Positions 11,927 to 57,445 of a DNA stretch of 64,000 nucleotides are shown here, in pieces. How positions within the stretch are numbered: the stretch's first letter is position 1; each line of letters starts with the position of its first letter. The position numbers were made by a program, and so were the translations under genes. The DNA is from Corynebacterium sp. 74A (GTDB lineage Bacteria; Actinomycetota; Actinomycetes; Mycobacteriales; Mycobacteriaceae), in contig NZ_PQMG01000001.1 in the NCBI RefSeq assembly GCF_008930665.1, forward strand, positions 186,001 through 250,000, read 5' to 3'. A model generated the notes under the pieces. That model was not told the DNA's origin. It did no database searches and worked only from the letters and a program-made list of their open reading frames with translations.

Positions 11927-14900
11927 ATGTCTACCTTCGCTGAGGCCCTCGAGCAGCTCCGTGCCAACCAGCCCAATCCCGCCCGTTATGGCTATGCCTT
12001 TGAGCGGTTGATGGTCAATTACATCAAGGCTGATCCGGTGCTGAGTACCGAGTATTCGGAGGTGTATCAGTGGTTGGATTGGCCGTACACCAATGGCCGC
12101 TCGGATTACGGCATTGATCTGGTGGCCAAGCGTGCCGAGGATGGCGCGTGGACTGCGATCCAGTGCAAGTTCTTTGACGATGCCACCACGCTGTCTAAAA
12201 GGCATCTCGATTCTTTCTTTGAGGCCTCGGGGCGTTCCTTCCGCACGGAGTCCGGTGTGGAGCAGTTCGCTAATCGCGTGATCATCTCTACCAAGGATGC
12301 GTGGAGTAAGAATGCGGAGTCGATGCTGGAGAATCAGGTTATTCCTGCGGCTCGCATCGGCTTGGCGGATATCGCCCAGTCCCCTATTGATTGGGATCTC
12401 ACCTTCCCTGGCGACACGGTAGAGATCAACCTCACCAAGAAGGAAACCTTCGAACCGCGCCCGCATCAAGAGCGCGCTATTGCTGCGGTGATGGAGGGCT
12501 TAGAAACCCACGATCGGGGCAAGCTGATCATGGCTTGCGGCACCGGTAAAACCTTCACCTCGCTGCGTTTAGCCGAGCGGGTTGCCGAGGCCAATGGTGG
12601 CCGAGCCCGTGTGCTGTTTTTGGTGCCGTCTATCGCGCTGTTGAGTCAGACGATGAAAGAGTGGCTGGCTCAAACCCGCATGGACCTTAAGCCTTATGCG
12701 GTGTGCTCTGATTCGAAGGTTTCGAAGAAGGCCGAGGATATCGCGTCCTATGATCTGGAGATTCCCGTCTCTACCAATGGTGCGGCTATCGCTGAGCGTT
12801 TCTCCCACGGCCGCCGCGCCGCCGGGCTGCAGGTGATTTTTTCCACTTACCAGTCCATTGAGGCTATTCACGACGCCCAACAGCAGGGTCTCGATGATGT
12901 CGATCTCATTATCTGCGACGAGGCCCACCGCACCACCGGTGTCACCCTCGCCCACGAGGATTCCTCGAACTTCGTGAAGGTCCATGATCCGGACTACATC
13001 CGCGCCACCAAACGCGTGTACATGACGGCCACCCCGCGGCTGTTCGATCAAACGGTCAAGGACAAGGCCGAGGAGCACTCGGCGGAGATCACTTCCATGG
13101 ACGATGAAGCGGTCTTTGGCCCAGAGTTCTTCCGTCTCGGCTTCGGCGATGCCGTCGATCATGGCCTGCTCACCGACTACAAGGTGCTAGTCATGACAGT
13201 CGACGAGGATGTCGCCGCCGAGGCCCTGGCTCGGAAAACCGGCACGGAGACCGGCGGCATTAACCTCGCCACGGCCTCCGCCATGATCGGCGTCTGGAAT
13301 GCCCTAGCCAAACGCTCTGGCACGCTCCAAGGTGGAAAGGCCGGTTTCAGCGCCACCGAAGCACCCATGCACCGCGCCGTGGCCTTCGCCAAGGACATCA
13401 AAACCTCCACCACCATTGCCACCACTTTCCCCGCGCTGATCGCCAGCCACCAAGAGCAGCTCCGCGAGAACTCTGCGCTTGACAACGCCGCCCTGCACAA
13501 CATCGACCTCAGCATCAGCGCAGAACACGTTGATGGTTCGATGAACGCCATGCAGCGCAACTCCCGCATTTCCTGGCTGGAGTCCACCATGAACGAGCAT
13601 GAGGCTCGCATCCTCACCAACGCTCGCTGCCTCAGCGAAGGTGTGGATGTGCCGGCACTCGACGCCGTAACCTTCTTCAATCCGCGCAATTCCATGGTTG
13701 ATGTGGTCCAATCCGTGGGCCGAGTGATGCGCAAGAAGGAGGGAAAGGACTACGGCTACATCATTCTTCCCGTCGCGGTTCCCCCGAACACGTCGCCGTC
13801 GCAGGCACTCAACGACAACACCCGCTTCAAGGTCGTGTGGCAGATCCTCAATGCGCTCCGCGCCCACGATGAGCGCTTCAACGCCAAGATCAACTCCATC
13901 GCGCTCAATTCCCCGGCCGACACACTGGACGCTGAGACAAAGAACGGTGCCGAGGCGCTGCCTTTGGAAGTCGATCACGTTAGCAGCACCCGCGAGATAA
14001 TCAACGAGACAAACACCGCCACTGACTCCGCGAGCAGCGAGGAGGGCGTTACTGAATCCACCCTGGCGTTGTTCTCCCTCGAGCAGTGGGAAGAGGCCAT
14101 GTATGTCAAGGTGGTTGATAAGGTTGGCTCCCGCACCTACTGGGAAGACTGGGCAGACGATGTCGCCTCCATCGCTCAATCCCAAACCCAGCGCATCACC
14201 AAGCTGCTAGCTATCGCGGATGTGAGCATTAAGGAAGAGTTCGATCACTTCCTCGCCGGTCTGCGAGGCAACCTCAATGATGCGATCACAACCGAGGAAG
14301 CCATCAGCATGCTCTCGCAGCATCTGATCACCGCCCCAGTATTCAACGCACTCTTCAGCGAGCACGACTTCGCCCACCACAACCCAGTCTCTCGAGTGAT
14401 GCAACGCATGGTCGATGCGCTCGAAGGAGCCAATCTTGACGCGGAAACAGAGTCCCTGCACCGCTTTTATGATTCCGTGCGGGTACGAGCCAGCGAAGTC
14501 ACCTCAGCCTCCGGCAAGCAACAGGTGGTCAAGGAGCTCTACGAAAAGTTCTTCCGCAAAGCCTTTAAGAAGCAATCAGAGGCCCTCGGCATCGTCTACA
14601 CCCCGGTAGAGATTGTCGATTTCATCCTTCGTAGCGCTAATGAGCTCTCTACCACACACTTCGGCAAGGGCTTGAGTGATCCAGGCGTGCATGTGCTCGA
14701 TCCCTTTACCGGCACCGGCACCTTCATGGTGCGGCTGCTGCAGTCTGGACTCATCCGGCCCGAGGACCTGGCTCGAAAATACGCCACTGAGCTCCACGCC
14801 ACCGAGATCATGCTGCTCGCCTACTATGTGGCCGCCGTGAACATCGAATCCACCTACAACGCCCTCAAGGCAGAAGAAGCACGGCGCAACGACGAGCCTG

Positions 14901-16945
14901 AACCAGAGTTCGTCCCCTTTGAAGGCATTGCACTGGCCGATACCTTCCAGATCACCGAGGAAGACGACACCCTCGATCTGGACTACTTCAAGGACAACAA
15001 CGCCGCTATCCAGCGGCAGATGGACGCACCCATCCACGTGATCGTGGGCAATCCGCCCTACTCCGTAGGCCAAACCAGCGCCAACGACAACAACCAAAAC
15101 CTCAAGTACCCAACCCTCGACGCCCGTATCGCCGAAACCTACGCGGCAAAATCTACCGCGACCAATAAAAACAGCCTCTACGACTCCTACCTGCGGGCCT
15201 TCCGCTGGGCCACCGACCGCATCGGCGAGCGCGGCATCGTTGCCTTCGTATCCAACGGTGGCTGGCTCGATGCCAACACCGGCGACGGCGTGCGCCTGTC
15301 CATGGCTGAGGACTTTAGCGACATCTACGTCTTCAACCTGCGAGGCAACCAGCGTACGGCCGGCGAACTTTCCCGCAAGGAGGGCGGCAAGGTTTTCGGT
15401 TCTGGGAGCCGCAACACCGTAGTTATCACCATCGGTATCAAGGACCCCACCGCCTCTGGCTGCACCATCCACTACCGCGACATCGGCGACTACCTTAGTG
15501 CTGAGCACAAGCTCGAGATCGTCGAACATTCCTCCCCTGCCACTATCGACTGGACCACGATCACCCCCAACAGTCACGGCGACTGGCTCAACCAGCGCAG
15601 TGCGAAGTACGAGAATTGGCCGGTTCTTGGGAGTAAGAAAAACACTTCCCAGCTCATGGTTTTCAAACGGTTCAGCCGAGGATTGGAAACCGGTCGCGAC
15701 AGTTGGGTAAATAATTTCTCCAATGATAGATTACAAAATGCTATTTCGTCGCTTTGCAGCACATATAATAATTCACTTGCACCCATCTATAAATGGTTTG
15801 AGAATAATAACCATTTAAACAAAAATGAATCTAGTGTTGCAAAGTTCCTCAAGGAGAGAACTAAGTACGCAGACCCGAAGGCGATAAAGTGGTCACGCAG
15901 TCTGCGCGCATTCGCAGCTAAGGGCGAGAAAGTGACTCCACAGAGCGGTTCATTTATTCATTCCCTATATAGGCCGTTCTGCACACAGCACGCTTACTTC
16001 GACAAGTATTTGAATCACGAGCGCAGCCAGCTCCCCTCGATGTTCCCGACTCCAGAGCATGACAACATCGGGATCGGGGTGTGTTCCACTTCGAATCGCA
16101 CACCATTCTCAGTACTCGGTGCTGATCGTATCCCGAATCTCGGACTATTCATGGATCCAGTTCAGTTCTTCCCCCGCTGGACTTGGGAACCCGTGAAGGC
16201 GCCAGAGGGTGAGCTTGATTTGATGGGAGCTATGGCGTCGGATCACTCAGAGGCCGCGCAGGGCTGTGAGGGCGAGATCCTCGATGGGTACCGGCGGGTG
16301 GATAACATCACCGATGAGATCCTCGCCGTGTACCAGAGAGCGCTCGGCGAGGATGTGACTAAGGACGATATTTTCTACTTCGTTTATGGCCAGTTGCACG
16401 ATCCCTCCTACCGCGAGACCTATGCGGCAGACCTGAAGAAAATGCTGCCCCATATTGAGACACCGAGCTCTCGGGCTCGCTTTGACCAGCTAGCTACCGC
16501 AGGCCGGAAGCTCATGGATCTCCACGTGAACTATGAGCAGGTTGAGCCTTGGCCAGTGAAACGGGGGGGGGGGAAGAACTCTGCCGATCTGTCTTCGCGT
16601 GAGGCGTGGCGGGTGCAGAAGATGAAGTGGGCCAAGGTCCGCGACCCAGAGACGAACAAGTTGGTTAATGACACCACAACGATCATCTATAACAAGCACC
16701 TGACTATTTCCGGCATCCCCGAAGATGCGGAGCGCTACCAGCTCGGCTCCCGTTCGGCACTGGCGTGGATCATTGACCGCTACCAAGTGAAGAAGGACAA
16801 GAACTCCGGCATTATCAACGACCCCAATGATTGGGCGGATGAGCAGGAGGCTCCTCGCTACATTGTGGATTTGATCGCCAAGGTCACTCGCGTCGCTGTA
16901 GAGACCGTGCGGATTGTCGATTCGCTCAGCGATAACGCGTGCTAG
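11927..16945 (+). CDS. Type ISP single-polypeptide restriction-modification enzyme
   Basis: The 1,672-residue protein has the order known from Type ISP enzymes such as LlaGI and LlaBIII. An Mrr-like nuclease comes first (GIDLVA with Asp64, then QCK at 79-81), followed by a superfamily 2 helicase/translocase (ACGTGKT 203-209, DEAH 331-334, MTATPR from 366), a coupler, a gamma-type N6-adenine methyltransferase (VLDPFTGTGTF from about 923, NPPY 1042-1045) and a C-terminal target-recognition region. Start ATG 11927 has no Shine-Dalgarno but CATAAT ends eight bases before it, so leaderless translation is plausible; ATG 11918 and GTG 11876 are alternatives. Two oddities: an AT-rich patch around 15705-15845 and an 11-G tract at 16563-16573 that could switch the reading frame. 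A terminator follows at 17024. Confidence 0.9.
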   Translation: MSTFAEALEQLRANQPNPARYGYAFERLMVNYIKADPVLSTEYSEVYQWLDWPYTNGRSDYGIDLVAKRAEDGAWTAIQCKFFDDATTLSKRHLDSFFEASGRSFRTESGVEQFANRVIISTKDAWSKNAESMLENQVIPAARIGLADIAQSPIDWDLTFPGDTVEINLTKKETFEPRPHQERAIAAVMEGLETHDRGKLIMACGTGKTFTSLRLAERVAEANGGRARVLFLVPSIALLSQTMKEWLAQTRMDLKPYAVCSDSKVSKKAEDIASYDLEIPVSTNGAAIAERFSHGRRAAGLQVIFSTYQSIEAIHDAQQQGLDDVDLIICDEAHRTTGVTLAHEDSSNFVKVHDPDYIRATKRVYMTATPRLFDQTVKDKAEEHSAEITSMDDEAVFGPEFFRLGFGDAVDHGLLTDYKVLVMTVDEDVAAEALARKTGTETGGINLATASAMIGVWNALAKRSGTLQGGKAGFSATEAPMHRAVAFAKDIKTSTTIATTFPALIASHQEQLRENSALDNAALHNIDLSISAEHVDGSMNAMQRNSRISWLESTMNEHEARILTNARCLSEGVDVPALDAVTFFNPRNSMVDVVQSVGRVMRKKEGKDYGYIILPVAVPPNTSPSQALNDNTRFKVVWQILNALRAHDERFNAKINSIALNSPADTLDAETKNGAEALPLEVDHVSSTREIINETNTATDSASSEEGVTESTLALFSLEQWEEAMYVKVVDKVGSRTYWEDWADDVASIAQSQTQRITKLLAIADVSIKEEFDHFLAGLRGNLNDAITTEEAISMLSQHLITAPVFNALFSEHDFAHHNPVSRVMQRMVDALEGANLDAETESLHRFYDSVRVRASEVTSASGKQQVVKELYEKFFRKAFKKQSEALGIVYTPVEIVDFILRSANELSTTHFGKGLSDPGVHVLDPFTGTGTFMVRLLQSGLIRPEDLARKYATELHATEIMLLAYYVAAVNIESTYNALKAEEARRNDEPEPEFVPFEGIALADTFQITEEDDTLDLDYFKDNNAAIQRQMDAPIHVIVGNPPYSVGQTSANDNNQNLKYPTLDARIAETYAAKSTATNKNSLYDSYLRAFRWATDRIGERGIVAFVSNGGWLDANTGDGVRLSMAEDFSDIYVFNLRGNQRTAGELSRKEGGKVFGSGSRNTVVITIGIKDPTASGCTIHYRDIGDYLSAEHKLEIVEHSSPATIDWTTITPNSHGDWLNQRSAKYENWPVLGSKKNTSQLMVFKRFSRGLETGRDSWVNNFSNDRLQNAISSLCSTYNNSLAPIYKWFENNNHLNKNESSVAKFLKERTKYADPKAIKWSRSLRAFAAKGEKVTPQSGSFIHSLYRPFCTQHAYFDKYLNHERSQLPSMFPTPEHDNIGIGVCSTSNRTPFSVLGADRIPNLGLFMDPVQFFPRWTWEPVKAPEGELDLMGAMASDHSEAAQGCEGEILDGYRRVDNITDEILAVYQRALGEDVTKDDIFYFVYGQLHDPSYRETYAADLKKMLPHIETPSSRARFDQLATAGRKLMDLHVNYEQVEPWPVKRGGGKNSADLSSREAWRVQKMKWAKVRDPETNKLVNDTTTIIYNKHLTISGIPEDAERYQLGSRSALAWIIDRYQVKKDKNSGIINDPNDWADEQEAPRYIVDLIAKVTRVAVETVRIVDSLSDNAC
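15705..15845 (+). other. AT-rich patch inside the target-recognition region of the Type ISP gene
   Basis: About 140 bases with many A/T runs (for example AATAATTTCTCC and AATAATAACC) interrupt an otherwise GC-rich gene without breaking the frame. It follows the methyltransferase NPPY motif by about 200 codons, where specificity is expected to lie. This suggests the target-recognition segment was exchanged by recombination with DNA from another source. Confidence 0.6.
16563..16573 (+). repeat. Poly-G tract, 11 bases, in coding sequence
   Basis: Eleven consecutive G encode part of Arg1546 and Gly1547-1549. I traced the other frames: losing one G leads to TGA at 16623-16625, gaining one G leads to TGA at 16600-16602. 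Both remove over 100 C-terminal residues. The tract length is in the range known for slipped-strand phase variation in other bacteria. A sequencing length error cannot be excluded. Confidence 0.8.
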
Positions 16946-57365: not shown

Positions 57366-57445
57366 GCTTATCGACGCCATCCTCGCCCCCCCCCGCACAT
57401 CACCAGCGCACAGCGCTTGCAGCGAGATGGCGTCGATAAGCGCAC
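57366..57445. repeat. Large inverted repeat of the 16-base motif between aspS and the metallopeptidase gene
   Basis: GCTTATCGACGCCATC (57366-57381) and GATGGCGTCGATAAGC (57426-57441) are perfect inverted copies; GTGC (57360-57363) and GCAC (57442-57445) extend the arms after a two-base bulge. The 44-base centre contains nine C's (57386-57394). The right arm ends ten bases before the metallopeptidase -10. Confidence 0.8.

What the first reader, a model, noticed from the sequence alone, without database searches (positions are those of the whole stretch)
16563..16573. Eleven-G tract makes the Type ISP restriction-modification gene a phase-variation candidate
A run of 11 G lies in frame at codons 1546-1549 of 1,672. 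I checked that one base lost or gained causes a stop within 20 or so codons, removing the end of the target-recognition region. Loss there should abolish both cutting and methylation at once, which is safe for the cell and would switch the whole methylome. Phase-variable Type I and III systems are well known; a poly-G switch in a single-polypeptide ISP enzyme in this genus would be new to me.
Basis: partly seen in the sequence, partly recalled or inferred. Interest (0 to 1): 0.82.

Follow-up and report, generated by a model that had tools for sequence, protein, structure and literature searches.

The report
Slippage-switched single-chain restriction enzyme gene
A bacterial DNA-defence enzyme gene contains a slippery run of eleven Gs that should let cells switch the enzyme off and on, and related bacteria have repeatedly evolved similar runs at other points of the same gene.

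Summary
In detail: window 16563-16573 is an uninterrupted 11-G run, in frame (CGG GGG GGG GGG), in an intact Type ISP restriction-modification gene (11927-16945, Corynebacterium). One G more or fewer gives a stop at codon 1559 or 1566. Type ISP genes of the genus (in 91 of 242 genomes) carry long G/C runs at about eight positions, gained about 11 times on a tree. Run lengths show a second mode at 8-14, about 14 times the whole-genome rate; 30 PutA and 30 HsdR loci have none over 6. Of 15 frame changes seen in genus loci, 11 lie at a tract, and those 11 alleles are otherwise open. Related genes 89-94% identical differ in tract length (10/11/14/9 C; 8/9 G). No MutS match was found. Correction: the lost part is the 'guide' subdomain, not the base-reading loops, so loss of both methylation and cutting is likely but unproven. 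No same-species length data were available; switching speed is unknown. The paper searches showed no repeat-switched Type ISP enzyme. Verdict: a real, recurrent new variant of a known kind.

The parts
11927..16945 (+). Type ISP restriction-modification gene, 1672 aa, intact (ON) in this assembly
   Evidence: Type_ISP_C, ISP_coupler, Mrr_cat_2, ResIII, Helicase_C, N6_Mtase; match to LlaBIII (4xqk) over residues 3-1668 and to LlaGI (5ffj)
16563..16573 (+). 11-G tract, frame CGG GGG GGG GGG (R1546 G G G)
12026..12415 (+). Mrr-type nuclease domain (residues 34-163)
   Evidence: PF13156 E 2.6e-41
12449..13735 (+). SF2 ATPase/translocase (residues 175-603)
   Evidence: PF04851, PF00270, PF00271
14138..14512 (+). 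coupler domain (residues 738-862)
   Evidence: PF22240 E 3.5e-49
14522..15100 (+). N6-adenine methyltransferase (Pfam stretch, residues 866-1058)
   Evidence: PF02384; DPFTGTGTF and NPPY visible (motif meaning recalled)
15659..16873 (+). C-terminal specificity region (residues 1245-1649)
   Evidence: PF18135 E 3.8e-90; AlphaFold model of residues 1193-1672, pLDDT 90.9, matches 5ffj/4xqk/7lo5
16499..16942 (+). guide subdomain as mapped on LlaBIII 1448-1578 (about residues 1525-1672); the part after codon 1549 is lost on frameshift
   Evidence: R1546 aligns with LlaBIII E1466 (counted by hand in the printed alignment)
16600..16602 (+). TGA reached in the frame entered by one added G (codon 1559 of the shifted frame)

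Best explanation
[quoted passage not shown] Strand slippage at the 11-G run during replication adds or removes G. Lengths equal to 11 modulo 3 read through (ON). The other lengths tested (9, 10, 12, 13 G) stop 12-21 codons after codon 1546 and give a protein without the C-terminal guide, which most likely can neither methylate nor cut stably (OFF). Lack of MutS-type indel repair makes the run mutable. A population would thus hold methylated, restricting cells and unmethylated, permissive cells. The same solution arose repeatedly at other sites of this gene in other corynebacteria. Shown: the tract, the frames, the recurrent tracts, the frame breaks at tracts, length differences between related genes, no MutS match. 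Inferred: slippage rate, reversibility, loss of both activities, benefit (phage bet-hedging, DNA uptake, or methylation-dependent regulation).
For: Run-length second mode at 8-14. 15 runs of >=9 in 462 kb of ISP gene against 1.03 expected at the rest-of-genome rate of 2.23 per Mb (14 if the pair of runs around an N gap in L146 is one). Controls: 30 PutA loci (102 kb) and 30 HsdR loci (64 kb), no G/C run over 6. Sites near codons 223, 323, 555, 673-705, 985, 991, 1118, 1546; 13 label changes on the tree, about 11 gains by my reading. Of 15 frame changes in genus loci (L146 left out) 11 lie at a tract; these 11 alleles have no stop before the tract and 550-1442 open codons after it. Another genus: 13 G near codon 990, OFF. 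No MutS_I match in this genome while 11 of 14 control genomes ring; M. smegmatis NucS does not repair 1-2 bp indels (PMC11551767, passages).
Against: No reads or same-species strains were available, so slippage in this species is not seen. In C. acnes, another actinobacterium, polymorphic G/C tracts follow clades, read by the authors as slow accumulation (PMC4746626, passages): OFF alleles could be slow losses and not fast switches. 67 of 86 genus rows in the tree have no tract. The tree is a quick one and flags long branches, among them L157, one of the tract rows. Homopolymer sequencing error could mis-set single ON/OFF calls. L024 is in frame at its tract but has an early stop elsewhere. 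The run replaces a conserved strand pattern, so the ON enzyme may itself be impaired. The enrichment P value ignores shared ancestry. The codon-shuffle null, which keeps the GGG/CCC codons of the tracts, gives up to 14 runs of >=8 by chance against 17 seen (>=9: up to 6 against 15).
Confidence: 0.78

Rival explanations
1. Slow contingency decay: the tracts are mutational hot spots in a defence gene that is often dispensable; frameshifts fix by drift or by selection against restriction and are rarely reversed, so there is no switch in the population sense.
For: C. acnes tract variation follows clades, and one R-M system there was inactivated five times independently (PMC4746626, passages). Several ISP copies in the genus are broken without a tract of 8 or more (L019, L027, L110, L113, L118, L129, L156).
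Against: Decay does not explain why the tracts arise and stay: G/C runs over 6 are absent from the 60 control loci but recur in ISP genes. The 11 tract-broken alleles carry no further stops. The C tract at codon 991 persists in genes that differ by about 21% of bases.
Confidence: 0.17
2. Site-specific partial loss: the frameshift at codon 1546 removes only the guide and leaves nuclease, motor, methyltransferase and base-reading loops, so the short form might still methylate (modification without restriction) or read another target, as the homopolymer-switched JHP1272 enzyme of H. pylori changes specificity.
For: The LlaGI guide does not take part in target recognition and steers DNA upstream of the target, towards the ATPase (PMC4872093, passages); R1546 maps 18 residues into the guide. 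JHP1272 precedent (PMC3936762, passages).
Against: The guide is the most conserved TRD subdomain; 11 of 32 invariant columns of the 49-row alignment lie after the tract; the same region is kept in DrdV, which as far as I recall has no motor. At other sites in the genus the tract cuts the methyltransferase itself or the part before it. Internal start codons with a Shine-Dalgarno-like sequence were seen in 3 of 9 tract-broken alleles among the first six candidates each.
Confidence: 0.15
3. Chance: an unremarkable G run that encodes glycines.
For: The genome has 6 other runs of >=9 G/C, apparently all between genes.
Against: Second mode of run length, recurrence in relatives, absence in control genes; glycines are not conserved here.
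Confidence: 0.04

Closest known systems
LlaBIII / LlaGI, Type ISP restriction-modification enzymes
   Same: Same domain order; TRD model matches 4xqk and 5ffj.
   Different: I saw no report of repeat-controlled expression of a Type ISP enzyme in the paper searches.
Type ISP loci HP0667-0669 and JHP0612-0613 of H. pylori
   Same: Type ISP genes broken by frameshift in sequenced strains; the MTase-specificity part HP0669 alone is an active MTase (PMC3936762, passages).
   Different: For HP0667-0669 the paper states that the two frameshifts are not due to sequence repeats.
Homopolymer-switched Type IIG / Type III enzymes (H. pylori JHP1272, C. jejuni Type IIG, mod genes)
   Same: Homopolymer tract in the coding sequence of a methylating enzyme; frameshift on slippage (JHP1272).
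   Different: No SF2 translocase in the same chain (recalled); here one tract would switch motor, nuclease and methylase together. The C. jejuni study was seen only as a reference-list entry.
Homopolymer phase variation in mycobacteria and C. acnes
   Same: Actinobacteria with variable homopolymer tracts in genes (listing, 63, 66 passages).
   Different: Those reports concern other genes in what I saw; in C. acnes variation looked slow and clade-bound.

Membership tests
Type ISP restriction-modification enzyme | Mrr nuclease, SF2 ATPase, coupler, N6-adenine MTase and TRD in one chain | tested here: met
   domains in that order; one search match to LlaBIII over 3-1668
Type ISP restriction-modification enzyme | C-terminal specificity fold (core, jaw, guide) | tested here: met
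   PF18135; AlphaFold model pLDDT 90.9, Foldseek E 6.4e-35 to 5ffj and 5.2e-34 to 4xqk; subdomain borders taken from PMC4872093 passages, not re-derived
Type ISP restriction-modification enzyme | Walker A, DEAH, MTase motifs I and IV present | tested here: met
   GTGKT, DEAH, DPFTGTGTF and NPPY read directly in the translation; motif names recalled
Type ISP restriction-modification enzyme | One-strand adenine methylation and translocation-dependent cutting | not testable with these tools
   no assay or methylation data
Slippage-type phase-variable (contingency) gene | Long simple repeat inside the reading frame, beyond chance | tested here: met
Slippage-type phase-variable (contingency) gene | Unit change gives a premature stop | tested here: met
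   in silico
Slippage-type phase-variable (contingency) gene | Tract length and phase differ between closely related alleles | tested here: inconclusive
   seen between related species at sites 223 and 991; for codon 1546 there is only this one allele, so untested for the window's own tract
Slippage-type phase-variable (contingency) gene | Variation within one strain or species, reversible, at high rate | not testable with these tools
   one genome per species held; no reads
Phasevarion (methylation-switched regulon) | Expression of other genes depends on the phase | not testable with these tools
   no expression data

The most novel reading that the evidence does not exclude
Type ISP genes of Corynebacterium are convergently evolving contingency loci: independent lineages have put slippery G/C runs into different stretches of one giant enzyme. 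The place of the run sets the kind of OFF state: total loss for early or mid-MTase sites, and for the guide site found here perhaps a methylation-competent but restriction-deficient (or re-targeted) form. Such a form would make the return to restriction safe because the chromosome stays methylated.
Probability: 0.15. Interest if true: 0.85.

Novelty: new variant of a known kind. Interest (0 to 1): 0.66.

Why it matters
If true, many corynebacteria use a slippage switch on a single-chain motor-driven restriction enzyme, so sequenced strains and cultures would be mixtures of restricting and permissive cells. That bears on phage sensitivity, transformation efficiency and methylome data for corynebacteria, and offers a system without MutS in which to ask why R-M genes so often become phase-variable. 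It is directly testable with long-read methylation calling.

Tried and rejected
Same-species or phage-borne copies: an exact 22-base pattern from just before the tract gave 0 matches in viral contigs; the protein gave one distant locus at 40% identity there; the plasmid search gave 90 records at 60-80% identity, none covering 80% of the query (only its 20 best rows seen). No same-species allele was found, so tract-length variation in this species is untested. The one scan of genome contigs returned 28 loci; the two contigs compared with G genomes by length were the same records, so it gave no second strain for the tracts at codon 223.

Chance run: rejected. The codon-shuffle null (runs >=8: mean 6.97, maximum 14, observed 17; runs >=9: mean 1.46, maximum 6, observed 15) is weak because it keeps the GGG/CCC codons of the tracts themselves; I rely on the run spectrum and the control genes.

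Modification-only OFF form by internal restart: not supported, not excluded. A Shine-Dalgarno-like sequence before one of the first six start codons was seen in 3 of 9 alleles examined (of 11), one before the coupler, one inside it and one inside the MTase.

An apparent 2314-aa in-frame ISP gene in C. striatum (L136) turned out to be an assembly gap of N.

Frame breaks without a tract (L018, L156, L163, L168) and stops inside otherwise aligned copies (for example L019, L027, L110, L113, L118, L129) were treated as ordinary damage and not counted as switches.

Full report
Observation. The window lies at G000:C1:186001-250000 of a genome of 2.46 Mb in 11 contigs. The genus is Corynebacterium, judged from genus members whose contigs match named Corynebacterium records; the species was not identified. 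Window 16563-16573 is an uninterrupted run of 11 G. It lies in frame (CGG GGG GGG GGG, R1546-G-G-G) in a 1672-aa open frame, 11927-16945. In silico, one G fewer stops at codon 1566 and one more at codon 1559.

Identity. Pfam finds Mrr_cat_2, ResIII/Helicase_C, ISP_coupler, N6_Mtase and Type_ISP_C in order. PADLOC's best model is a 1646-position REase_MTase_IIG. NCBIfam gave only matches below its cut-offs. LlaBIII (4xqk) matches residues 3-1668, and LlaGI (5ffj, chain without the nuclease) 171-1422 plus a C-terminal piece. It is a Type ISP enzyme, intact in this assembly. Neighbours are PTS genes upstream (EIIC-GAT; EIIA/IIB) and a proline dehydrogenase/aldehyde dehydrogenase gene downstream.

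Is the tract special in this genome? There are 7 runs of >=9 G/C. By inspection of ORFs the other six are between genes (no family search was done on those ORFs), so this seems the only coding one.

What relatives show. As held, the genus has 242 genomes including this one; 91 have a Type ISP match at E<=1e-60. From (L001-L030; L097-L168) I used 102 gene pieces, 84 spanning the full gene, 462 kb in all. Some fragments listed (in G007, G041, G062, G194 and a distant second G193 match) and smaller ones were not used. G/C run counts by length are 4:1669, 5:297, 6:26, 7:1, 8:2, 9:3, 10:4, 11:7, 14:1; A/T runs stop at 7. The 17 runs of >=8 lie in 16 gene pieces; two flank one N gap in L146, so 16 tracts is the fair count. 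Runs of >=9 number 15 against 1.03 expected at the rate of the rest of the 91 genomes (2.23 per Mb), 14.5-fold; the Poisson P of 5e-13 ignores shared ancestry. Two control genes from the same genus, 30 PutA loci (102 kb; the 30 best of 67 genomes with a match among 101 searched) and 30 HsdR loci (64 kb, the matched region only; 30 of 56 genomes with a match among 241), have no G/C run over 6.

Positions and origins. Tracts sit near codons 223, 323, 555, 673-705, 985, 991, 1118 and 1546. On a tree of 86 genus rows plus 3 outgroup rows, built without the tract columns, 19 rows carry a tract label. Of these, L148 has 7 G, and G101 and G032 have a run interrupted by an insertion, so their labels are inferred. 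The labels need 13 changes; I read about 11 gains: 223 twice, 323, 555, 673-705 twice, 985, 991 twice, 1118, 1546. The tree is a quick one with SH-aLRT support only and warns of long branches, among them L157. The window's tract is unique: 48 of 48 other rows in the C-terminal alignment (49 of 92 eligible sequences) lack the R-G-G-G and mostly show a TVDVK/LDIQVK-type strand. At other sites relatives without a tract write the residues with mixed codons, for example GGC GGC or GGT GGC at codons 224-225.

Phase. In frame at the tract: L001 (window, 11 G), L020 (10 G), L024 (10 C, but an early stop elsewhere), L028 (10 C), L111 (8 G). Out of frame: L134, L137, L142, L148, L149, L151, L152, L153, L154, L157, L158. 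These 11 are 11 of the 15 frame changes seen in genus loci; the others are L018, L156, L163 and L168; L146, with an assembly gap in its tract, is left out (my count). In the 11 the break found by alignment coincides with the tract or lies within about 150 bases of it (L157 widest); there is no stop before the tract and the 3' part is open for 550-1442 codons. Related genes differ in length: L028 10 C, L151 11 C, L152 14 C, L153 9 C (89-94% nt identity); L111 8 G and L134 9 G (90.9%). In two genomes (G101 at site 555, G032 at site 991) a mobile element with the same ends sits in the run.

Outside the genus. 401 genomes of the family were searched, 71 with a match at E<=1e-100, genus members included. 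51 loci from other genera (244 kb) were read; five further partial matches were not fetched. One of the 51 has a tract (L226, 13 G near codon 990, out of frame); otherwise there is no G/C run over 6 within the matched gene. So the habit is concentrated in, not confined to, Corynebacterium.

Mechanism. No MutS_I match was found in this genome, while 11 of 14 control genomes ring. M. smegmatis NucS does not repair 1-2 bp indels, and its authors link this to phase variation at homopolymers (PMC11551767, passages). I did not search for nucS in this genome. Slippage is therefore plausible here. Against fast switching: in C. acnes 54 variable tracts follow clades, read as slow accumulation (PMC4746626, passages).

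What OFF does. R1546 aligns with LlaBIII E1466, 18 residues into the guide (1448-1578; PMC4872093, passages). Frameshift removes about 112 of 131 guide residues but leaves nuclease, ATPase, coupler, MTase, TRD core and jaw. [quoted passage not shown] the guide is also the most conserved TRD subdomain. 11 of 32 invariant columns lie after the tract, and the region is kept in DrdV. The AlphaFold TRD model (pLDDT 90.9) has a short strand at model residues 353-356, so R-G-G-G (354-357) runs from that strand into the next loop. I judge loss of both activities most likely (inference), with modification without restriction as the main alternative.

Prior reports. Searches (held PMC library, open licences only) gave no repeat-switched Type ISP enzyme and no phase-variable R-M gene in Corynebacterium in the titles and abstract starts listed; searches matched more papers than were listed. 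Six papers were opened, all by passages only. For H. pylori HP0667-0669 the two frameshifts are explicitly not due to repeats (PMC3936762). A 2025 review names phase-variable Type I and III systems in the passages seen (PMC12707154). PMC13335696 mentions Type ISP without a repeat switch in the passages seen.

Verdict. The tract is real and very probably a slippage switch; the stronger finding is its repeated evolution in this gene family. It is a new variant of a known kind.

Noticed in passing
L150/L165 (G101) and L144/L145 (G032): The same mobile-element ends sit inside the G/C run of the Type ISP gene in two species at two different sites, flanked by G or C runs on both sides: an element that may prefer poly-G targets.
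   Followed up: partly
G163: L155, L164, L291, L292; G112: L163, L168: In two species the Type ISP gene is split at codons ~923-940 (DNA of the DPFTGTGTF motif) by about 27 kb (G163) and 54 kb (G112) with the same left junction sequence; the G163 insert holds a large serine recombinase and a phage tail gene: a prophage-like element that may use the restriction gene as its attachment site.
   Followed up: partly
G203: L147, L166: Type ISP gene split near codon 1040 with the two parts about 51 kb apart on one contig.
   Followed up: no
window 57386-57394: A 9-C run in the short divergent region between an aspS-like gene and a putative metallopeptidase gene (gene names from reading the ORFs): a possible promoter-spacing tract.
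   Followed up: no
L171 4001-4011, L172 4001-4010 and 4057-4064, L174 4001-4012: Other long G/C runs of this genome (11, 10 and 8, 12), apparently between genes.
   Followed up: no
L226 (G411), near codon 990 of its Type ISP gene: A 13-G tract, out of frame, in another genus of the family, at the same loop where corynebacteria carry a poly-C tract.
   Followed up: partly
   Followed up: no
   Followed up: no
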